From Mangrovivirga cuniculi (GTDB lineage: Bacteria > Bacteroidota > Bacteroidia > Cytophagales > Cyclobacteriaceae), in assembly GCF_005166025.1 (NCBI RefSeq), contig NZ_CP028923.1, positions 4,466,001 to 4,530,000 of the forward strand: 64,000 bases of DNA. The letters run 5' to 3'. A program made the position numbers and the translations under genes. The notes beneath the pieces were generated by a model. The model was given only the letters and a program-made list of their open reading frames with translations, was not told the DNA's origin and searched no databases. This document shows, piece by piece, positions 22,401 to 32,413 of the stretch (position 1 is its first letter; each line of letters begins with the position of its first letter).

Positions 22401-22428
22401 AAAAAAGACGGATGATTAATCCGCCTTT
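22401..22428 (-). terminator. Intrinsic terminator after the giant ATPase gene
   Basis: On the minus strand the hairpin GGCGGAT-TAATC-ATCCGTC (22425-22407) is followed by seven T and further T-rich sequence. It lies about 40 bp after the stop at 22469 and should end the five-gene PspA/flotillin operon. Confidence 0.78.
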
Positions 22429-22468: not shown

Positions 22469-25400
22469 TTATTCAGTATCCTTATTATTACTTAAAACAT
22501 CCCTGATACCAATTAATCCTTTTGTTAACTCTTCAACCTGTCCGAGCATCTGGCCCATCTGGTTACCCGAACCATATCCTTTGATCTTTTGTTGCTTGAC
22601 AAATAATTCCTTGATATGATTCCATCTTTCCAAATCAGAATTTAAGAGTTCATTATTGAGCTCTTTTAATTTTAGCAAATTAGCTTCTGCTCCTACAGTT
22701 AAAGTCTGAGCTTCATTTTCATAATGACTGTCAACCAGCACTTTTAATTCCGAGTCATTCATCACAGAAAATACTTTTTCAGCAATTTTATTCATATCCC
22801 GATATGATCCCTGCAATTTAAATGGAGGCTCAGTACGATATTCATCAGCTTGTCCAGCAGAACGAATATACTCCATATTAACTTTCAGGATTACATCCCT
22901 CACTTCAAATAATTTTTTAAAAACCGATATATATTCCTTTATCTCTGCCTGAGAATGGTTAGTCTCAAACTGAGCTCCTTCTATAGAATCTCTCTCTGCA
23001 GCTGAAACAAGTGTATAAACATCTTCTAAACTTTTCCCGGCAAGTTTATTAAGCACAGGATTAGAGGTTATGCAATTTTCGATGTAGCTCAATTTAAAGG
23101 CTTGATCTGAATCCCCGATAATATCACCCAGATTATAGACGTCAGCCCGGTTGGCTAACATATCTGGTATTTGAAATTTCTCACCACTTTCAGTATAGGG
23201 GTTTCCAGCCATTACAACTGAAACTTTTTTACCCCTAAAGTCATATGTTTTACTTTTACCTTTGTAAACACCCTCGATTTTACGCTGACCATCACAAAGA
23301 GATATAAATTTCTGAAGGAATTCCGGATTACAATGCTGGATATCATCGAGATAAATCATCACATTATCTCCCATTTCAAACGCAAGATTCAGCTTTTTCA
23401 GTTCTTCTCGTGCTGCTGCATTCGTTGCTTCACCCGGATCCACTGATGTTACGGAATGACCAATGGCCGGCCCGTTTATTTTCATAAAAATAACTCCAAG
23501 CCTGTTTGCTATATATTCCATCAAGGTAGTTTTACCATATCCGGGAGGAGAAATCAGAAGTAACATCCCCATTAAATCCGTACGCTTCGATGCACCGGTT
23601 TCACCAATTTGCTTTGCCAGGTTTGCTCCGATCATTGGAAGGTAAACCACATTAATTAATTTATTTCTAACAAACGAAGACATCACCTTTGGCTTAAATT
23701 CCTCAAACCTGAGATCTTCATTAAATTCTTCGATCAGCTGCCGCTTAATTTCATGAAATTGTCTGAACTGAGGGACGACTTCTTCCTCATATTTAGTCAT
23801 TCTATCAATGAACCTATTAAAATTCAATTGATAAACACCATCATTAATTTTCGGATGTGAGCCCTGAAACCCTTCTAAATTTTCAATCAAAGGAACATTT
23901 ATTGTTCTTTCAGATTTTTTACCCGACAAAATGATCAGTGACGCTTCATCAATAAAATCCTCCTGGCTTAAATTATCTGAATTATCCACATATGCTTCAA
24001 TCCATTTTCTAATTAAGGCAAACCTGTCTGAAGTTTTCTTTACGCTATTAACAGATTGCTTAAAACGAGCATCAACCTTTCTCTTTTTTAAATATTTTTT
24101 AAAATCCTCGCATAAGGTAAATGCATCATAAGAAATGATAAACTCATTCTGATCTTTGATTTCATAAAACAAGTATTCTGAAACAGACTTCAGTGGAAAA
24201 TCTTCGAATTCTTCAGGTAGTTTATCAGAAAGAAGCTGTTTTAATTCCTCTATAACCTGTTGATATTCCTTCAGATCAGGAAAAACTTCAATAATGATCC
24301 CAAGCCCTTTTATTCGGGTATCAAGAGTGGATTTTAAATCGTCATCAATTGAATACTCCCAAAAATATCTAGCTGCAGCCCTGGATTTAGAAGAATAGCA
24401 CAGCAATCCACCGGAACGATTAAACTTTAAAATAGAATTCAGGATCAGAGCAGCGTCTGAATCATGTATTCCCTTTACGTAGCCCTCCTCATAGCGAGTG
24501 GCCATGAACTTATTCACTAAGTCATTTAGTTGAGCGATAGTGTATTTCGTCAAATCATCCAGCGATAACTCTTCATCAACATCTCTAAGATTTCCAGCTC
24601 TTCCTTCTTTAAATATTTGATAGGCTAAAAATTCTGCTCTGTAAACCTGTTCGTTTTCGGAGATCAGAGATTGATTCCACACCTGTTTGCTTTCATTTAT
24701 CTTTTCATTGGTAATTTCCTCGTAAAGATTAGTACCTGTCAAATGAAAATATAAGCTATTATCTTTCGGAACAATAGTTATTTCAGGCTTTTGCGTATTG
24801 ACAGAGAACTTGTAATTACCAAACTTAATTATATCTTTTCCCTGCTCGAATAATTCAGTTTTATCTCTCAGTTGCCTGATTGCATCCTCTTTGAGCGATT
24901 TCAGTCTGCTTTGAACATCATCAGATTTTACAGTATCTCCTAATTCAGAAAGCTCAGCAATGATATTCCGAAGCTTTTCGATCATTAAATCTGAAGAAAA
25001 ATACCCATTGATTTCAGAGACCGAATTCATTCTTTCTGCCCTGCTTTTTGCAGCTCCTAAAATTCTGTCAGCCGACTGAACCAAAGAAGTAGTGCGCTTA
25101 TTTTTTGCTTCTACCAACTGTACTTTTCTGGACTCAAAAGCATTGTATATTTCTTCCCTTTTTTCGGATATTTTTTCTATGAATTCATTAAACTCAACAA
25201 ACTTTCCTTCAAGTTCCTCGAGTTGGATCATCAATTTAGCAAGGTATTCATCGCATTTTTTAGGAGTATCAGAAAGATCCAGATAATTGGTTACTCCCTG
25301 CTCTACCAATTTAATTTGAGCAACGAACTCAGCTTTTCCTTCCACGAGCATCATTGCTCTCTTTTTCTTCTTAAAATTCGACCTGATCTTGTTAAGATTT

Positions 25401-27388
25401 GAAAAAAGTGCTGAGATATTTTCAATGATCTGTGTAGTCTTGGTTGGATCAGAGATTTTTAAATTACCAACAATGTCAATAAGCATTTCAAGTCCTTTGG
25501 CAATTCTTTCACTCTCTTTGTCCAGCTCCTCAATATCAATTACCTTTTCTACTTTTTCAAGATCATCCTCAAGCTGATTAACCTTCGATTTATAATCATC
25601 TAATGAATCTTCCCGAAGTAAAAACCTGACACAACTATCTGAATATCTTAAACTTTCTTCCTTAAGCAACTCCTCATACTTTTCGACTTTCTCTACATCA
25701 ACGTACCTGAGTGATTTAAGAGATTCGGTTTCACCTCTTAACTCCCTCAAAGATGTGAGATTTTTGACATACTGATCGAGCGACTTATGGGTAGTAAGAT
25801 TAATTTTCTTTAGCAATTCATCCACCCTTCCGAATACATTATCAAGTTGCTGATTTGTATTTTTTCTAATCTGAACTACCTTATCATACTCATCGATCGC
25901 TGAAGATGCGACTTCTTTGATCTCCAGAAGAAATTTTGCTGCATTGTATGCTTCTTCATGCCCAAGCCAGTGATAGCTATCAATAATATCTGTAGCCATC
26001 TTATTAAGATCATCATAAAGATTTTTATAATTTTCACCTTTCTGAACCAAAGTAATGATCTCGTTACATTCGGCCATGGCTTTAACAATTTCTTTATTCC
26101 CGACTTTGAATAAAAACGAATCACTTTGGGCTGATTCAACCTGGAAATCAGGACCGGTAAAAGGTGTTTGCCAGATCTTAGTTGAGTGGTGTTTTTTTGG
26201 TTCATCATCTGCATTAAAATAACACAGTTCCCCGTTTTGAAAGAGAGCATACCCATGACAAACGATTGGGTTTTCAACTTTTTGCTTTATGATATTATAA
26301 GGTAGCAAAAGATATAGACCACTTTGCCTGTTGTAATAAACATATAGATAATCTTCTCCATTAGGTGATGAAATAGTTTTCTCAAACACCATGTGTTCCA
26401 GGTCATTATCAAATAATTTAAAATCCCCATTTTGAAGATAATATCCATTAGAAAAGATGATTCCCTGGTCATCCGGAAGCAATATACATGACTCTGAAAT
26501 TGCATTTATACGACGTGCTTCCTGTAATTTGCTATTGTAGACTATATATCGATGTTGATTTTCCTGGTAAGGCCTTATTTTTAGCAAAATCAAATTACCT
26601 AAAATAGCATAATTGACATCTGCATCATCGAGAGTTTGATCAGGATTATCAACCTCCTCGCTGTATATCCCACGGCCCGTATCAGTATTATCCTCCACTT
26701 TGATTGTGAGATCTCCTCCTGTTGTTTCGATAAAAATTTTATCTTCTACTGAAATATGAGGAAACTCCCCTTTCCTGTGATCGTCACGAGTCGTTCTTTT
26801 CCATTCAAAATCATGTTGAGGTGGGAATTCAAATTCGTGATCACTTCGATTATCGACATATTTCAATTCAGAACCATCGATTAACCATTTAAAAGTTTTT
26901 ATATCTGAAGAAAGCTTGCCGATTTTGAAAACCATGAATAAATACGGCCCAATGATCGCAAACTTTACAAAGCGGGTTTCTTTGTAATACTTATAGAGCT
27001 TATGAAAATCATCTTTGAATTGTTGATCTTCTATAATTGCTAAATCAGAAACAGGGAATGAATGGTCTACGTACTGATGCACACTAAATACATCGGATAA
27101 CTCGACTTGATTTTTTAATCCTAAGTGAACGTTATATCCAAAAATGAATTTATTCCCAACGGGAACCATATCCCATGGAATACAATTATGTTCTGTGGTA
27201 ATTCGATCTGTTCCAATTAACGATGTTTCAATGGATCCAAATACACTTTTCCTCTGACCATCAAGTTTTTTCTGCGTATCTATTAAATCCCGGGTACTCG
27301 ACTGAAGCCTGTTTTTTAAAACTTCATAAGTTCCGTTTTCCAGAGTTTCTGATTGATCGATATTTGAAGCTGTCTTTTCTTCAGACAT
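22469..27388 (-). CDS. Giant AAA+ ATPase, DUF3686-type (annotated elsewhere as 'DNA repair ATPase')
   Basis: A 1639-residue cytoplasmic protein. Residues ~1-450 form a beta-rich region. Residues ~450-900 are long coiled coils. Residues ~1270-1420 are an AAA+ module with Walker A LLISPPGYGKTTLM (around residue 1282), Walker B NVMIYLDDIQH, and VSVVMAGNPYTESGEKFQIPDML-type sensor residues. The family is often labelled a DNA repair ATPase, without mechanistic proof that I know of. Its place as last gene after YbjN/YjfI-like, PspA, YqiJ-like and flotillin genes points to envelope maintenance instead. It starts 87 bp after the flotillin gene and is followed by a clear terminator. Confidence 0.82.
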   Translation of the reverse strand: MSEEKTASNIDQSETLENGTYEVLKNRLQSSTRDLIDTQKKLDGQRKSVFGSIETSLIGTDRITTEHNCIPWDMVPVGNKFIFGYNVHLGLKNQVELSDVFSVHQYVDHSFPVSDLAIIEDQQFKDDFHKLYKYYKETRFVKFAIIGPYLFMVFKIGKLSSDIKTFKWLIDGSELKYVDNRSDHEFEFPPQHDFEWKRTTRDDHRKGEFPHISVEDKIFIETTGGDLTIKVEDNTDTGRGIYSEEVDNPDQTLDDADVNYAILGNLILLKIRPYQENQHRYIVYNSKLQEARRINAISESCILLPDDQGIIFSNGYYLQNGDFKLFDNDLEHMVFEKTISSPNGEDYLYVYYNRQSGLYLLLPYNIIKQKVENPIVCHGYALFQNGELCYFNADDEPKKHHSTKIWQTPFTGPDFQVESAQSDSFLFKVGNKEIVKAMAECNEIITLVQKGENYKNLYDDLNKMATDIIDSYHWLGHEEAYNAAKFLLEIKEVASSAIDEYDKVVQIRKNTNQQLDNVFGRVDELLKKINLTTHKSLDQYVKNLTSLRELRGETESLKSLRYVDVEKVEKYEELLKEESLRYSDSCVRFLLREDSLDDYKSKVNQLEDDLEKVEKVIDIEELDKESERIAKGLEMLIDIVGNLKISDPTKTTQIIENISALFSNLNKIRSNFKKKKRAMMLVEGKAEFVAQIKLVEQGVTNYLDLSDTPKKCDEYLAKLMIQLEELEGKFVEFNEFIEKISEKREEIYNAFESRKVQLVEAKNKRTTSLVQSADRILGAAKSRAERMNSVSEINGYFSSDLMIEKLRNIIAELSELGDTVKSDDVQSRLKSLKEDAIRQLRDKTELFEQGKDIIKFGNYKFSVNTQKPEITIVPKDNSLYFHLTGTNLYEEITNEKINESKQVWNQSLISENEQVYRAEFLAYQIFKEGRAGNLRDVDEELSLDDLTKYTIAQLNDLVNKFMATRYEEGYVKGIHDSDAALILNSILKFNRSGGLLCYSSKSRAAARYFWEYSIDDDLKSTLDTRIKGLGIIIEVFPDLKEYQQVIEELKQLLSDKLPEEFEDFPLKSVSEYLFYEIKDQNEFIISYDAFTLCEDFKKYLKKRKVDARFKQSVNSVKKTSDRFALIRKWIEAYVDNSDNLSQEDFIDEASLIILSGKKSERTINVPLIENLEGFQGSHPKINDGVYQLNFNRFIDRMTKYEEEVVPQFRQFHEIKRQLIEEFNEDLRFEEFKPKVMSSFVRNKLINVVYLPMIGANLAKQIGETGASKRTDLMGMLLLISPPGYGKTTLMEYIANRLGVIFMKINGPAIGHSVTSVDPGEATNAAAREELKKLNLAFEMGDNVMIYLDDIQHCNPEFLQKFISLCDGQRKIEGVYKGKSKTYDFRGKKVSVVMAGNPYTESGEKFQIPDMLANRADVYNLGDIIGDSDQAFKLSYIENCITSNPVLNKLAGKSLEDVYTLVSAAERDSIEGAQFETNHSQAEIKEYISVFKKLFEVRDVILKVNMEYIRSAGQADEYRTEPPFKLQGSYRDMNKIAEKVFSVMNDSELKVLVDSHYENEAQTLTVGAEANLLKLKELNNELLNSDLERWNHIKELFVKQQKIKGYGSGNQMGQMLGQVEELTKGLIGIRDVLSNNKDTE

Positions 27389-27475
27389 AGGTAGTCAGTT
27401 AAGTTATTAGTTGAGGAGAATTGCAACCCGGAAATTCCCGGGTTGCAAAAAATTATTGTTGATTCAATAAGGCCT

Positions 27476-29644
27476 TTAAGCCAATCCTAATTTTCTCGGA
27501 GATTCATTATCCAGCCCTGCTGATTTGGCGATTCCCATCAGCTGACGGATATTATCTTTCATGTCATCATCCTGAGCATTTTGCATCATTTTAAATAACA
27601 ATGCAGATATGGAAAGATTCTTTAAGTCCTCAGATGAAATATTCAGCGTACTCATTATTTCTCCAATGTTATTTCGGAATGAGGATCCACCGTCAGATTT
27701 CAAAAAAGCATCCTTCACATCAGTTATCACATCACTGCTTTTCATAAATCCATCGATGGCTTTACCTTTGGCCATCGAACCGACTATTTGATTGAAGAAG
27801 GTTGATTCCCCACCAATAATATCAATATTTGCAGTTTTCATAGCTTCAGCCATTACCTCTGCTTGTGCTTCGGCGATCTGTCTGTTCACATCTAATTGTG
27901 CAAGCTCGACAGCTCTGTCTTTATCTAATCTCATCTTAAATTCTTCATGCTCCATACCGGCACCATCAAGAATCTTCATCGCTTCAGCCTTCTCTTTTAT
28001 ACCATCAGCATCTGCTTTAGCTTTTGCTGCCATTACACTAGCTTCTGCCAAGCCTTCTTTTTCCTTAGCAGTTGCCATTACTTCGGTAACTTCAGAATCA
28101 GCTTTTCCTTTTTCACGTGCTACTTTTGCAGCCACAAATCCAAGCCTCTCATCAGCTTCAGCCTGAGCATTCGATTTCATTTTAATACCCTTCGCTTCTG
28201 CATCTGCCTTCATTTCGATTACTGATGCTTCAGATTCCCCTTCTTTCTCTTTCGCTTCAGCTTTAGCAGACATCACCTGTGCTTCAGACATACCGATGGC
28301 AGCTTTTTGAGCAGCTTCAGCATCGGCTAATGTTTTCATTGCTTCTGCTTTGTGAATTGCTGCTGATTGTTCTGCCTCAGCATCAATCAGAGCCTTTTTA
28401 GCTAATGACTCCGACGCCTGGCGTGCAGCCTCGGCAGCTTTGATCTCCTGAACAAGTGCTTCCTGCGCTTTTTGTTCTGCAACTGTTATCGCAACTTGCT
28501 TATTACGTTCTGCTTCCGCATTTGCCCTGGTATCTTTGATCTTTTCCTCTTCTTCAACAGTAGCTTTCTCCACAGTAACGCGCTCGCGAATAACTTCCTG
28601 GATATTTCTTCTTTCTACTTCAAGAGATTTTTCCTTTTCTATCTGTGCCAACTCTACTACACGTTCCCTTTCGGTAGCTTCCAGAGCTCTCGCCTGCTCA
28701 ACTCTTTCGCTCTCTATCGCATCCGCTTTTTCCTTATTCTTTTGAGCTACTAATATCTGACGTAATTTATTTTCCTCAGCTACTCCGATCTCTTCCTCAG
28801 TCGCTATTCGGGCATTTTGCGCCTTCTTATCATTTTCTGCCTGAACACGCTCTATTTCAGCAGACTCCCTGGCTTTAATTGACTCGACCTCTCGTCTTTG
28901 CTGCTCCTCTTTTTCAATTTGCTGACGTTCTAACTGGAGAATTGTTTCCCTGGCTTCAACATCTTGCTTCTTGATCGTTTTTTCCTTTTCTCTCTCGATC
29001 AGGTTAGCTTTGATCTTTTCTTCAGAAGTTAATTCTATGATCTTTTTTATACCCTGTGAATCAAGAATATTATCCTGGTTAAGATCGTGTATAGATGTTT
29101 GTTCAACATAATCAATAGCACAGTCATCTAAGACATATCCATTTAGGTCAGTACCAATTTCCTGAAGGATTTTCTCTTTAAAACTCGCCCTGGAATTATA
29201 TAATTCAACAAAATCAAAATGTTTACCTACAGTTTTTAATGCCTCGGAAAATTTCGCATCAAAAAGGCGTTCTAACTCACTAATCTCTGATGCTCTGTGA
29301 CATCCGATTGATTGAGCTACATGAATTACATCCTCAGTAGTTTTATTTACCCTGATAAAGAAACTCACCTTGATATCTGCCCGCATGTTATCTTTACAGA
29401 TCAGACCATCTTTAGCCATTCTGGAGATGTTCAAAGTCTTCAAAGTGATATCCATCACTTCCAGCTTGTGCAATACAGGTACAACAAATATACCTGAGAA
29501 AGAAACTTTGGCGTCTCCCAATCCGGTCCGGATTAGCGCTTCACCCTGTACCGCTTTTCGGTACATTTTTATGAACATTGAGATAATTCCGATCACCAGA
29601 ATTACTCCAACGATCAATGTAATCATTAGAATTTTATCTGTCAT
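27476..29644 (-). CDS. Flotillin family protein (YqiK-like)
   Basis: A 722-residue membrane-anchored SPFH protein. One N-terminal helix (residues 4-25) is followed by a SPFH/band-7 domain to about residue 205, then a very long Ala/Glu/Lys-rich coiled coil (about 215-570) typical of flotillins. The C-terminal ~120 residues are globular. Flotillins scaffold ordered membrane microdomains. It begins 7 bp after the YqiJ-like gene, a pairing conserved in many bacteria. Codon bias in the coiled coil creates long open frames on the other strand, which are not genes. Confidence 0.9.
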   Translation of the reverse strand: MTDKILMITLIVGVILVIGIISMFIKMYRKAVQGEALIRTGLGDAKVSFSGIFVVPVLHKLEVMDITLKTLNISRMAKDGLICKDNMRADIKVSFFIRVNKTTEDVIHVAQSIGCHRASEISELERLFDAKFSEALKTVGKHFDFVELYNSRASFKEKILQEIGTDLNGYVLDDCAIDYVEQTSIHDLNQDNILDSQGIKKIIELTSEEKIKANLIEREKEKTIKKQDVEARETILQLERQQIEKEEQQRREVESIKARESAEIERVQAENDKKAQNARIATEEEIGVAEENKLRQILVAQKNKEKADAIESERVEQARALEATERERVVELAQIEKEKSLEVERRNIQEVIRERVTVEKATVEEEEKIKDTRANAEAERNKQVAITVAEQKAQEALVQEIKAAEAARQASESLAKKALIDAEAEQSAAIHKAEAMKTLADAEAAQKAAIGMSEAQVMSAKAEAKEKEGESEASVIEMKADAEAKGIKMKSNAQAEADERLGFVAAKVAREKGKADSEVTEVMATAKEKEGLAEASVMAAKAKADADGIKEKAEAMKILDGAGMEHEEFKMRLDKDRAVELAQLDVNRQIAEAQAEVMAEAMKTANIDIIGGESTFFNQIVGSMAKGKAIDGFMKSSDVITDVKDAFLKSDGGSSFRNNIGEIMSTLNISSEDLKNLSISALLFKMMQNAQDDDMKDNIRQLMGIAKSAGLDNESPRKLGLA

Positions 29645-29651
29645 TTTAGTT

Positions 29652-30275
29652 TTAGTTGTATGGTTCTATTAAATAAATGTTTTGATCTTTTCTGTATTCC
29701 AACACCAGGCCGGTCTCTCCATTACTCATCTTTGAATCAGTCGTTGTTCTGACATTTAAAATATGAGGCGCTCCTTTTGTTGATACTTTGGCCTGTCCTG
29801 TCTTGATTTTGCTTGCCGGAATAGTGATTGTGCATACTTTGCCTATTAAAACATCTCCCGCATCACCACTGGAATTTAATTTCCCAAAAATCTTAACAAA
29901 TGGCATGGTCATGAACTTGGCAATGAACAATCCTAATATCAAAGATCCCAGAAGAACCGGAATTCCAAGAATAATTGAAGAATTCCCTATCAAGTCATTG
30001 ATAATCATTGAGATTGTCCATGAGGGTATGATCAGGAATGTAAAAAATATCATTACCGGCACCTGACCAAGATTAAAAAATGCAAGTACATTATTTAGCC
30101 ACATTACTGAGGCCCCGTCAATCTCGGCATCTGCATCCAAATCAACATCAATATCGAAAAGATCCATGTCCAGCAAACCAATTATAACGGTTATCCAATA
30201 AACAACAACGAATATCGCCAGCGCAGTTATAATAATGTTTGCCGGCGATACTGAAGCCGCTAGCACTTCATTCAT
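29652..30275 (-). CDS. YqiJ-like/NfeD-type membrane protein with OB fold
   Basis: A 207-residue inner-membrane protein. Three hydrophobic segments (about residues 12-35, 65-90 and 95-130) precede a C-terminal OB-fold-like domain (GDVLIGKVCTITIPASKIKTGQAKVSTKG). Proteins of this YqiJ/NfeD type are obligate neighbours of flotillins and are thought to work with them in the membrane. It lies 7 bp before the flotillin gene and 7 bp after the PspA gene. Confidence 0.83.
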   Translation of the reverse strand: MNEVLAASVSPANIIITALAIFVVVYWITVIIGLLDMDLFDIDVDLDADAEIDGASVMWLNNVLAFFNLGQVPVMIFFTFLIIPSWTISMIINDLIGNSSIILGIPVLLGSLILGLFIAKFMTMPFVKIFGKLNSSGDAGDVLIGKVCTITIPASKIKTGQAKVSTKGAPHILNVRTTTDSKMSNGETGLVLEYRKDQNIYLIEPYN

Positions 30276-30282
30276 ATAATAT

Positions 30283-30996
30283 TTATTTGTCGTTGTTAAT
30301 ACCTAATTTTTCTTTTAATCTGGCTAGTTCCTCAGCTTTATCGCTGGTTTCTGCCTGCGCAAGAGTTTTATCTATCTCTTCATCGATACTTCTTGACTCC
30401 TCTGCCATTTCACCATAACTTTCCGCAAGAGCTTCTTCCTGATCAACTTTTTCTCTCATTCGCTCCAGCATGCTAATTGTATCTGAAGAATCGATCTGAG
30501 CCATTTGCTTATTTATATTTTTAGTGGCATTACTCACTTTTACCCTTGCTTTAAGAGTTTTAAGTTCATTTTCCCACTTTGCGATCTTTGACTTTAATCT
30601 CTTGATATTGCCTTCAAGCTGCTCTACAGAAGATTCGAATTGTTGTTTTTGACCCTGAGCCCTGGCAGCATGTTTCATGTTTTCTTCTTTTTGAATAAGC
30701 GCCTCAGTAGCTAAACGATCTGCCTCTTCGTTTGAAACAGAACCAGTTTGCGCACTTTTAAGAAGTTTTACAGCCTTTTGCTCATAATCTTCTGATTTGG
30801 AGGTATAATTTTCATACTCTCTCCTGGCTTTGATAGCCATCGCTTTTACTTCGGCAAGGGATTTCAAACTTTTATCGAGATCTTCTTTCATATCTCTGAT
30901 TCCCTGCTCAGTTAATTTTATAGGATCTTCTAATTTATCCACAGCTGCATGAGCTTCAGATTGACCAATTTTAAATAATCTTCTAAATATGTTCAT
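30283..30996 (-). CDS. pspA: PspA/IM30 (ESCRT-III-like) family protein
   Basis: A 237-residue, almost wholly helical peripheral membrane protein. The N-terminus MNIFRRLFKIGQSEAHAAVDKLEDPIK matches the amphipathic helix and start of PspA/IM30. The rest is heptad-rich coiled coil. Family members assemble into rods on stressed inner membranes and preserve the proton-motive force. It is the second gene of the five-gene operon, 14 bp after the YbjN/YjfI-like gene. No PspF/PspBC homologues are present, so control must differ from the enterobacterial system. Confidence 0.9.
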   Translation of the reverse strand: MNIFRRLFKIGQSEAHAAVDKLEDPIKLTEQGIRDMKEDLDKSLKSLAEVKAMAIKARREYENYTSKSEDYEQKAVKLLKSAQTGSVSNEEADRLATEALIQKEENMKHAARAQGQKQQFESSVEQLEGNIKRLKSKIAKWENELKTLKARVKVSNATKNINKQMAQIDSSDTISMLERMREKVDQEEALAESYGEMAEESRSIDEEIDKTLAQAETSDKAEELARLKEKLGINNDK

Positions 30997-31010
30997 GGTT
31001 TTATGTTTTT

Positions 31011-31403
31011 CTACTTTGAAAATGTGATTAAATCATTACTGTATTCACTAAGCAAAAGGCCAAGAGAGTTAAATGAAGCTTCAAGTTCATTTAAATCAAG
31101 ATTCTCCAGTTCTAAAGTATTTCTAAAAATCACCTTTCTTCCTGTCTCATCTAAAACAAATGCTCCGTGTATAATGTCTCTGTTTTTTTGCAGCAACTTC
31201 TTCAGCGTTCCATTTGAATCATCCTGCAATTCCAATATGAATTGCTCCATAATTAGGATCGGATCGGCACAACCCAGAACCAGGTTTGATATACCTGAAG
31301 AAGGATCATTAACTACGAGTACCCCGTTTGATTCATCTTCGTGGCTAATATCGTAATCGAGGTCAATTACATAGTCTCTAACTTTTTGATAGTTTTTGGT
31401 CAT
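31011..31403 (-). CDS. YbjN/YjfI-like small acidic protein
   Basis: A 130-residue soluble protein and first gene of the PspA/flotillin operon. Its sequence (VRDYVIDLDYDISHEDESNGVLVVNDPSSGISNLVLGCADPILIMEQFI) has the look of YbjN/type III-chaperone-like folds, and small proteins of this kind (YjfI, DUF2170) commonly accompany PspA. The exact family is uncertain. A function as a partner or chaperone of PspA is inferred from position only. Confidence 0.65.
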   Translation of the reverse strand: MTKNYQKVRDYVIDLDYDISHEDESNGVLVVNDPSSGISNLVLGCADPILIMEQFILELQDDSNGTLKKLLQKNRDIIHGAFVLDETGRKVIFRNTLELENLDLNELEASFNSLGLLLSEYSNDLITFSK

Positions 31404-31538: not shown

Positions 31539-31559
31539 GTTGCTCATAAAATTAGCAAC
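31539..31559. promoter_or_regulatory. Inverted repeat in the divergent promoter region
   Basis: GTTGCT (31539-31544) and AGCAAC (31554-31559) form a perfect inverted repeat with a 9-bp spacer, between the PspA operon and the XRE regulator gene. A dimeric repressor such as that XRE protein could bind here. The spacing and location fit an operator, but there is no direct proof. Confidence 0.35.
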
Positions 31560-31636: not shown

Positions 31637-32413
31637 ATGTCATATATCGGCAAAAACATCAAAAAAATACGCGTTGTCAAAAAAATGAGCCAAGCTGATT
31701 TTGCTCAAATCTTTGACATCGCAAGACCTAGTGTAGGTGCCTACGAAGAAGGACGTTCCGAGCCGAAAATAGAAACTATTATACAAATTGCAAAATACTT
31801 TAAGCTCTCTATAGATACATTGTTGACAAAAGAACTCACCATTAATGAGCTCTATAAGTTTGACTTGTTTAAAAAAGAATTCAAAGGTTCTTTAGATAAA
31901 AAAGTAGACAAGCCTCACAAAGATTCTATACAGAAATCCACCCCATTGGTAACCATTGGTGATCACTTAAATTACATAGTAAACTATGATCATGCGGATT
32001 TCATTAACAATTTACCGGAAATACAATTCCCCTTAAACAAATCTAAAAAAACAAGGGCTTTTCAAATTTCCGGTAGCGAAATGGAATATGAAGGCTGTGG
32101 ATTAAATCACAAAGACATCATACTCTGTACTCCAATTGATAAGAACTCAAAGCTCAACACTGACACTCTTTATATTGTAGTAACCAATGATGAGATTATT
32201 TCTAGGTCTTTAAAAACTATAACGAAATCAACTATGGTATTCAAACCATACAATCCTGCCTATGACAATTCTTCTATTAAAAAAGAAGATATCATTGAAT
32301 TATGGAAAGCAGAAGCTGTTTTTAGCCTTACATTACGATCTCCCAGCAGACTTGAGGAAAGAGTCGAAAAACTAGAACAACAATTAGACAAACTTCTTAA
32401 GGATAAAATTTAA
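31637..32413 (+). CDS. XRE-family regulator with degenerate S24-like C-terminal domain
   Basis: A 258-residue DNA-binding protein. Residues 5-60 are an XRE helix-turn-helix (IRVVKKMSQADFAQIFDIARPSVGAYEEGR). Residues ~130-235 follow the LexA/CI S24 fold, but the GDSMEP catalytic-Ser block reads GSEMEYEG and the Lys block reads IISRSLKTI, so both catalytic residues appear lost and self-cleavage is unlikely. A short coiled coil (LEERVEKLEQQLDKLLKD) ends the protein. It is divergent from the PspA operon with 233 bp between, so it is the best candidate for that operon's regulator. Confidence 0.8.
   Translation: MSYIGKNIKKIRVVKKMSQADFAQIFDIARPSVGAYEEGRSEPKIETIIQIAKYFKLSIDTLLTKELTINELYKFDLFKKEFKGSLDKKVDKPHKDSIQKSTPLVTIGDHLNYIVNYDHADFINNLPEIQFPLNKSKKTRAFQISGSEMEYEGCGLNHKDIILCTPIDKNSKLNTDTLYIVVTNDEIISRSLKTITKSTMVFKPYNPAYDNSSIKKEDIIELWKAEAVFSLTLRSPSRLEERVEKLEQQLDKLLKDKI

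What the first reader, a model, noticed from the sequence alone, without database searches (positions are those of the whole stretch)
22469..31403. PspA-flotillin-giant ATPase operon as a possible membrane-repair system
Five tightly spaced genes encode a YbjN/YjfI-like protein, PspA, a YqiJ-like OB-fold membrane protein, a flotillin and a 1639-residue coiled-coil AAA+ protein. The spacing (14, 7, 7 and 87 bp) and one terminator show a single unit. PspA is an ESCRT-III-like polymer, and ESCRT-III needs an AAA+ remodeller (Vps4) in eukaryotes. The giant ATPase, usually called a DNA repair ATPase, could fill that role here. This is inference from gene context.
Basis: partly seen in the sequence, partly recalled or inferred. 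Interest (0 to 1): 0.62.

Follow-up and report, generated by a model that had tools for sequence, protein, structure and literature searches.

The report
Flotillin–ATPase operon with optional PspA
The gene cluster is real and its type is already described in print; its giant ATPase is nearly always found beside a flotillin and only sometimes beside the membrane-repair protein PspA, so it is more likely a motor of flotillin membrane patches than a bacterial stand-in for Vps4.

Summary
The five-gene minus-strand operon is confirmed. Ravi et al. 2024 (PMC11237479, section 19) already describe this combination: CesT/Tir–PspA + YqiJ + band-7/flotillin + coiled-coil/propeller AAA+.

What I add:
(1) The ATPase's steady partner is flotillin: linked in 72 of 74 loci with room and 23 of 23 genomes of a planctomycete sample. 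PspA is linked in 44 of 74 and 2 of 23. Of 30 genomes without linked PspA, 14 have none over cut-off, including all 8 Pontibacter among them.
(2) The AAA+ module's best predicted-fold matches are MoxR-type ATPases (NorQ, CbbQ), closely followed by dynein; Pfam shows no MIT domain.
(3) A sixth gene: a divergent XRE–S24-like regulator (31637–32413), in 43 of 43 CesT–PspA loci with room and 0 of 28 loci without them. It seems to lack the autoprotease residues. A candidate operator lies in the gap.

Best reading: flotillin/YqiJ scaffold with a MoxR-like motor, joined in Bacteroidota by a regulated CesT–PspA module. Function is inferred.

The parts
22469..27388 (-). giant ATPase (1639 aa): beta-propeller (about residues 56-407), long helices, AAA+ core about 1240-1580 with Walker A PPGYGKTT at 1281-1288, DD at 1348-1349, Asn1396 and Arg1414
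27476..29644 (-). flotillin / SPFH protein (722 aa), YqiK-like
29652..30275 (-). YqiJ-like membrane protein (207 aa)
   Evidence: YuaF match only E 0.95
30283..30996 (-). PspA (237 aa), the only PspA_IM30 match in this one-contig genome
31011..31403 (-). CesT/Tir-superfamily protein (130 aa)
   Evidence: PF22550 4e-55
31637..32413 (+). divergent XRE-HTH + S24-like regulator (258 aa), proposed sixth member; autoprotease residues apparently lost
31542..31556 (.). candidate operator GCTAATTTTATGAGC (degenerate copy of GCTCAANNNTTGAGC, 3 mismatches), next to a promoter-like match at 31589-31560 (-)
22404..22428 (-). intrinsic-terminator-like hairpin after the ATPase gene

Best explanation
Two modules sit in one transcription unit. 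The core is YqiJ + flotillin + giant ATPase: the flotillin, with YqiJ, forms a membrane-bound scaffold, and the ATPase, probably a ring with a MoxR/dynein-like AAA+ core and a propeller plus coiled-coil arm, remodels or assembles protein complexes at that scaffold. In Bacteroidota a second module, CesT/Tir protein + PspA, is often joined to it. It brings an ESCRT-III-like membrane-stabilising polymer and is switched by the divergent XRE/S24-like repressor, which seems unable to cleave itself and so would sense its signal by binding. Shown here: gene content, linkage counts, predicted fold, residue substitutions, enrichment of the palindrome. Inferred: ring assembly, flotillin as docking partner, repression, and any role in membrane stress.
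For: Flotillin is linked to the ATPase in 72 of 74 loci with at least 5 kb upstream. In the phylum of a Planctomycetaceae MAG it is next to the ATPase, same contig and strand, in 23 of 23 ATPase genomes (coordinates compared by eye), and in 11 of 11 plasmid-collection records examined. PspA is linked in 44 of 74 loci, in 2 of those 23 genomes within 10 kb and in 2 of 11 records. Of 30 genomes without linked PspA, 14 have none over cut-off; 9 have a clear CesT-PspA pair elsewhere. AAA+ fold: the first 10 rows are NorQ/CbbQ (Z 13.1-14.6), then dynein and midasin (13.0-12.1), then ClpA/ClpB (11.9 and below). The regulator is divergent within 600 bp in 43 of 43 CesT-PspA loci with room and in 0 of 28 YqiJ-flotillin-ATPase loci. 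The palindrome, at 3 or fewer mismatches, is in 29 of 43 intergenic gaps against 1.8 in shuffles; a relaxed form is in 30 of 43 gaps (7,956 bases) against one per 17,655 bases over all these loci. Precedents: the SPFH protein YdjI brings PspA to the membrane in B. subtilis (PMC8581546, abstract); SPFH proteins HflK/C associate with the AAA protease FtsH (PMC12048511, start of abstract).
Against: No physical contact between ATPase and flotillin was tested. The flotillin-ATPase gap is often long (median 537 bp over 78 loci), so co-transcription is not general. E. coli keeps YqiJ-YqiK without the ATPase, so the scaffold exists without it. MoxR ATPases usually have a VWA partner (recalled; also PMC7159879, passages) and none was found in the five operon genes or three neighbours. 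The lower MoxR rows and the first dynein row are tied (13.1 and 13.0), and Pfam also scores RuvB_N over its cut-off. The loci are the best 80 of 488 and clumped by genus. The operator pattern was derived from the same gaps; its 11 exact copies are all Hymenobacter, and 14 of 43 gaps have no copy within 3 mismatches, among them that of the nearest relative L038 (L038 has a 4-mismatch copy).
Confidence: 0.5

Rival explanations
1. One reading: the ATPase is the Vps4 counterpart that pulls apart PspA polymers in membrane repair.
For: PspA and ATPase are linked in 8 of 8 ATPase genomes of the Bacteroidota sample, the window's own included, and in 44 of 74 loci. Where unlinked, 16 of 30 genomes have PspA elsewhere, 9 of them as a clear CesT-PspA pair. 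Ravi et al. propose ESCRT-like analogues for PspA-AAA+ pairs (passages).
Against: ATPase kept without PspA over cut-off in 14 of 30 genomes and 7 of 23 planctomycete-sample genomes. MoxR-like core; no MIT or Vps4_C listed by Pfam. 109 of 117 genomes of the sample with PspA over cut-off lack the ATPase.
Confidence: 0.17
2. Conflict/defence system: a MoxR-like motor with propeller and scaffold acting against phage, spread between strains on plasmids.
For: Patchy: 8 of 296 Bacteroidota genomes. A whole six-gene set on a 169-kb Hymenobacter plasmid and a related set on pQBR103. MoxR-vWA conflict systems with propellers exist (PMC7159879, passages).
Against: PADLOC gives only a 17-bit match to mad8 for the ATPase, 13-bit coiled-coil matches (JetC, LmuB) for PspA, and HTH-region matches for the regulator, the best HTH_VI and RmrA at 40 and 37 bits. 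Pfam names no nuclease or toxin in the unit. Membrane-stress partners are conserved.
Confidence: 0.08
3. DNA-repair ATPase, as Pfam and NCBI name the family.
For: Family names. Pfam RuvB_N over its cut-off for residues 1264-1311, the Walker A region, and RuvB as Foldseek's first match for the C-terminal model.
Against: NCBIfam's RuvB models are far below their cut-offs (27.7 of 282 bits). No repair gene in the unit; flotillin linkage in nearly all loci. VIA-align ranks MoxR first, with no RuvB in the 50 rows shown. No paper in the library holds 'DUF3686'.
Confidence: 0.04

Closest known systems
CesT/Tir-PspA + YqiJ + band-7/flotillin + coiled-coil/propeller AAA+ operons (Ravi et al. 2024, PMC11237479, section 19 read whole)
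   Same: Same five gene kinds; the same shortened forms without PspA are noted; an ESCRT-like analogy is made in its conclusion (passage).
   Different: The held main text has no 'MoxR', 'S24', 'XRE' or 'LexA'. The linked regulator, the MoxR-like fold and the linkage counts are added here. Its supplements could not be looked at.
B. subtilis PspA with YdjG, YdjH and the SPFH protein YdjI
   Same: A PspA with an SPFH protein that localises it (PMC8581546, abstract).
   Different: No AAA+ gene in the operon as Ravi et al. describe it; different membrane proteins.
HflK/C-FtsH
   Same: SPFH proteins with an AAA+ motor (PMC12048511, start of abstract).
   Different: FtsH is a membrane protease of the classical AAA kind (recalled); here Pfam names no protease domain in the ATPase.
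MoxR-type AAA+ such as NorQ and CbbQ
   Same: Best structural matches of the AAA+ core.
   Different: The solved chains have 231-267 residues and NorQ is seen with a VWA protein; this one has a propeller and coiled-coil arm and no VWA match in the unit.
Vps4-ESCRT-III
   Same: PspA is of the ESCRT-III superfamily (Liu 2021, Junglas 2021, seen only as references); an AAA+ gene is near.
   Different: No MIT domain or Vps4_C listed by Pfam; a hairpin before sensor 1 in the model; PspA is dispensable to the ATPase.

Membership tests
CesT/Tir-PspA-flotillin-AAA+ operon class (Ravi et al. 2024) | CesT/Tir, PspA, YqiJ, flotillin and propeller/coiled-coil AAA+ genes together | tested here: met
PspA/IM30 | PF04012 over its gathering score | tested here: met
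   153.7 bits against 33.9
SPFH/flotillin | Band_7 match of the protein itself | tested here: not met
   No Pfam match at E 0.1 for the window protein, no Band_7 in any of 14 members; Pfam may be insensitive to this subgroup
SPFH/flotillin | Homology to recognised flotillins | tested here: met
   Family profile hits E. coli YqiK at 5e-67; 38% identity to a Band_7 protein
Vps4 | N-terminal MIT domain and Vps4_C | tested here: not met
   Neither is among the 7 Pfam families listed at E 0.1; the modelled N-terminus is helix, then propeller
Vps4 | Classical AAA core without a pre-sensor-1 beta-hairpin (definition recalled) | tested here: not met
   Model has a hairpin at protein residues 1370-1375/1378-1383, pLDDT 85-88, before the sensor strand
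Vps4 | Structural match to solved Vps4 | tested here: inconclusive
   Not in the 50 rows shown, which excludes nothing
MoxR AAA+ | AAA+ core nearest to MoxR members | tested here: met
   Rows 1-10 are NorQ/CbbQ, Z 13.1-14.6, rmsd 3.8-4.8, 225-251 aligned; dynein at 13.0 is tied with the lower of them
MoxR AAA+ | VWA partner encoded alongside | tested here: not met
   No VWA match in the five operon genes, the regulator or two further neighbours; so it is not filed as a MoxR member
Autocleaving S24 repressors (LexA/UmuD/CI) | Ser-Lys dyad | tested here: not met
   Lys aligns to Arg190 (R in 36, K in 1 of 43 rows); the Ser column is Glu or Asp in 37, Ser in 1, Ala in 1, gap in 4 of 43. In the LexA/UmuD alignment the Ser column depends on a two-residue gap
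DNA-repair ATPase | A role in DNA repair | not testable with these tools
   The name comes from family descriptions

The most novel reading that the evidence does not exclude
A widespread bacterial machine in which a flotillin/YqiJ membrane scaffold is worked by a giant MoxR/dynein-like motor with a propeller arm. In Bacteroidota it was merged with a PspA (ESCRT-III-like) module under a non-cleaving LexA-like repressor: an ATP-driven membrane-remodelling system whose motor belongs to another AAA+ clade than Vps4.
Probability: 0.35. Interest if true: 0.65.

Novelty: new member of a known kind. Interest (0 to 1): 0.4.

Why it matters
Bacterial PspA and flotillins are studied largely without a motor (my impression, not searched). 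This operon class offers one, and the counts here say which partner to test first: flotillin, with PspA-free Pontibacter strains as natural controls. The divergent regulator and its candidate operator give an experimental handle to induce the system and find its stress signal.

Tried and rejected
Vps4 as a homologue of the ATPase: rejected on domain content and fold; Vps4 was simply not in the rows shown, which by itself proves nothing.

Sequence search of solved structures: the best matches cover little beyond Walker A (p97, RuvB, NSF, best 60 rows shown of 98 and 118), so no clade could be read from them.

Foldseek on the C-terminal model ranks RuvB first, with ClpB, MCM and NorQ also in the top 50. 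This was not taken as DNA repair, because VIA-align on the same pool puts NorQ/CbbQ first. The tool warns that an 810-residue model can weaken single-domain matches; the AAA+ core was not folded alone.

Regulon: the strict pattern GCTMANNNNNTGAGC has 7 strand-hits at 5 sites in the genome against 3 for the reversed control, so no regulon is claimed. Search for the palindrome in front of separate YqiJ-flotillin-ATPase operons: 2 of 31 loci, both Aureivirga and AT-rich; not convincing. In 6 of 44 linked loci it occurs within 400 bp before the flotillin gene; left open.

PspA tail as an ATPase docking motif: the same tail occurs in two PspA not linked to the ATPase.

Rows dropped before counts: 14 of 88 loci with under 5 kb upstream. 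For structure alignments I kept 48 rows under 80% identical, leaving out L063, L089, L091 and L096 beforehand. A3 used all 48; of the 44 and 47 rows printed for the two C-terminal stretches I left out 5 and 8 with long inserts, mostly planctomycetes (39 rows each in A2 and A4). Of 12 plasmid hits I fetched 11 (not H3, which looked like a twin of H2 in the table).

Full report
OBSERVATION. The window holds five same-strand genes at the stated places and spacings. Pfam names the CesT/Tir protein (PF22550, 4e-55), PspA (PF04012) and the ATPase (PF12458 DUF3686, PF25472, AAA; RuvB_N also just over its cut-off). The flotillin and YqiJ are not named by Pfam in the window copy, but are supported by homology: the flotillin profile hits E. 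coli YqiK at 5e-67 and the YqiJ profile hits E. coli YqiJ at 2e-11, and YqiJ_N matches 9 of 14 members. A terminator-like hairpin follows the ATPase. The genome (4.66 Mb, one contig) has one DUF3686, one PspA and one such flotillin match. The closest relative of the ATPase among the loci fetched is in Marinigracilibium pacificum, 83% identical.

ALREADY IN PRINT. Ravi et al. 2024 (PMC11237479; section 19 read whole; other passages) describe the same combination. They also note shorter operons with flotillin, YqiJ and 'in some cases' the AAA+ gene. Their conclusion proposes ESCRT-like analogues. In the eight searches I made I met no functional study of the ATPase, and no paper in the library holds 'DUF3686'; these cover open-licence papers only, and mostly listings were seen.

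WHO IS THE ATPASE'S PARTNER? In a sample of 296 Bacteroidota genomes, the window's own included, 8 have the ATPase. All 8 have PspA within 4 kb of it (matches compared by eye), and 109 others have PspA over cut-off without the ATPase. In a second set (80 loci, the best of 488 relatives, plus 7 from the sample and the window), 74 loci have at least 5 kb upstream: 43 are CesT-PspA-YqiJ-flotillin-ATPase, 1 lacks a recognised CesT gene, 28 are YqiJ-flotillin-ATPase, and 2 have neither. So flotillin is linked in 72 and PspA in 44 of 74. Of the 30 genomes without linked PspA, 16 have PspA over cut-off somewhere and 14 do not (13 no match, 1 below cut-off); the 8 Pontibacter genomes in the set are all among the 14, while a ninth Pontibacter, L028, has linked PspA. 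Completeness of these genomes is not told and some are MAGs, so single absences are weak. Nine of the 16 carry a clear CesT-PspA pair elsewhere (profile E under 1e-40), 4 of them with the regulator beside it, within flanks of about 1.5 kb. In the phylum of G311 (the genome of L072, a Planctomycetaceae MAG) 23 of 149 genomes, the centre included, have the ATPase. Flotillin lies next to it in 23 of 23; PspA is over cut-off anywhere in 16 of 23 and within 10 kb in 2 (G352, G467). In 11 records from the plasmid collection flotillin is adjacent in 11, YqiJ in 10 and PspA within the 8-9 kb flanks in 2; several of these records are chromosome-sized. On a FastTree tree of the ATPase the PspA-linked label needs 7 changes over 74 rows (shuffles 23.4; at least 6 by starred branches): PspA linkage was gained or lost several times on a continuous flotillin-ATPase background. 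Long branches and skewed composition were flagged there.

WHAT KIND OF ATPASE? Models: residues 1-700 (48 rows, pLDDT 86) and 830-1639 (39 rows, pLDDT 84). The first shows a beta-rich part from 56 to 407, whose best Foldseek matches are mostly beta-propeller proteins (TM-scores low), then long helices; this agrees with Ravi et al. The second contains the AAA+ core. Walker A Lys1286, the DD at 1348-1349, Asn1396 and Arg1414 are invariant in 39 of 39 rows. VIA-align puts ten MoxR-type chains first (NorQ, CbbQ; Z 14.6-13.1), then dynein and midasin (13.0-12.1), then ClpA/ClpB (11.9 and below); the lower MoxR and first dynein rows are tied. A beta-hairpin precedes the sensor-1 strand. Neither MIT nor Vps4_C is listed by Pfam. 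This argues against Vps4 kinship, not against a Vps4-like action.

A SIXTH GENE. 31637-32413 (+) encodes an HTH (1.8e-11) plus S24-like (3.7e-8) protein. A homologue stands divergent, under 600 bp from the CesT gene, in 43 of 43 CesT-PspA loci with room (the 44th contig, L017, ends) and in 0 of 28 YqiJ-flotillin-ATPase loci; the one locus with PspA but no recognised CesT gene, L059, also lacks it. Four of the 43, L013-L016, are shorter proteins without the S24 motif region. The LexA catalytic lysine aligns with Arg190 (R in 36, K in 1 of 43 rows), and the column I take for the catalytic serine is Glu or Asp in 37 of 43 (1 Ser, 1 Ala, 4 gaps). With E. coli LexA and UmuD the lysine column is clean; the serine column depends on a two-residue gap. 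So the protein looks unable to cleave itself; this does not point to an SOS-type switch. In the gaps between regulator and CesT gene, GCTCAANNNTTGAGC at up to 3 mismatches occurs in 29 of 43 loci against 1.8 in mononucleotide shuffles. The pattern came from the same data, the 11 exact copies are all Hymenobacter, and 14 gaps have none at that threshold. The window copy, 31542-31556, lies 3 bp from the best promoter-like match (31589-31560, 11 of 12), but that scan finds no more promoters than shuffles do (26 against 29.6), and Bacteroidota promoters differ from sigma-70 (recalled).

MECHANISM. Inference: the flotillin, with YqiJ, makes a scaffold on the membrane; the MoxR-like ring with its long arm works on it or its clients; CesT-PspA adds a membrane-stabilising polymer under separate control. 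The known SPFH-AAA+ pair HflK/C-FtsH and the SPFH-PspA pair YdjI-PspA (abstracts) make both contacts plausible.

CONTEXT. The whole six-gene set is on a 169-kb Hymenobacter plasmid, so it can probably move as one block. pQBR103 joins a DUF2170 YjfI-type gene, PspA and polyamine-linked genes to YqiJ-flotillin-ATPase, merging two of the published operon groups.

Noticed in passing
L128 (NZ_CP010056.1 124137-145035): All six genes, regulator included, on a 169-kb Hymenobacter plasmid.
   Followed up: partly
L123:1025-14229 (pQBR103): YjfI/DUF2170, PspA, rhomboid, DUF2491, DUF350, DUF1190 and a glutathionylspermidine synthase-type gene directly before YqiJ-flotillin-ATPase on a Pseudomonas plasmid.
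   Followed up: partly
L055 and L104 (genome G324): The ATPase stands without flotillin beside it, while regulator-CesT-PspA-YqiJ-flotillin lie together elsewhere in the same genome.
   Followed up: partly
L021, L024, L057 between flotillin and ATPase: Different-looking short frames between flotillin and ATPase in Pontibacter species.
   Followed up: no
L042:6977-7474, L058:6987-7538: An extra short flotillin-like frame between YqiJ and the full flotillin.
   Followed up: no
G000:C1:3412312-3413055: A second protein 29% identical to the regulator over most of its length, elsewhere in the genome.
   Followed up: no
L094: A contig labelled Thalassovita (Pseudomonadota MAG) carries an ATPase that branches with Flexithrix: transfer or misbinning.
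   Followed up: no
NZ_LT559118.1, NZ_OL790812.1: Plasmid-collection records of 11.9 and 4.1 Mb that look like chromosomes by size.
   Followed up: no
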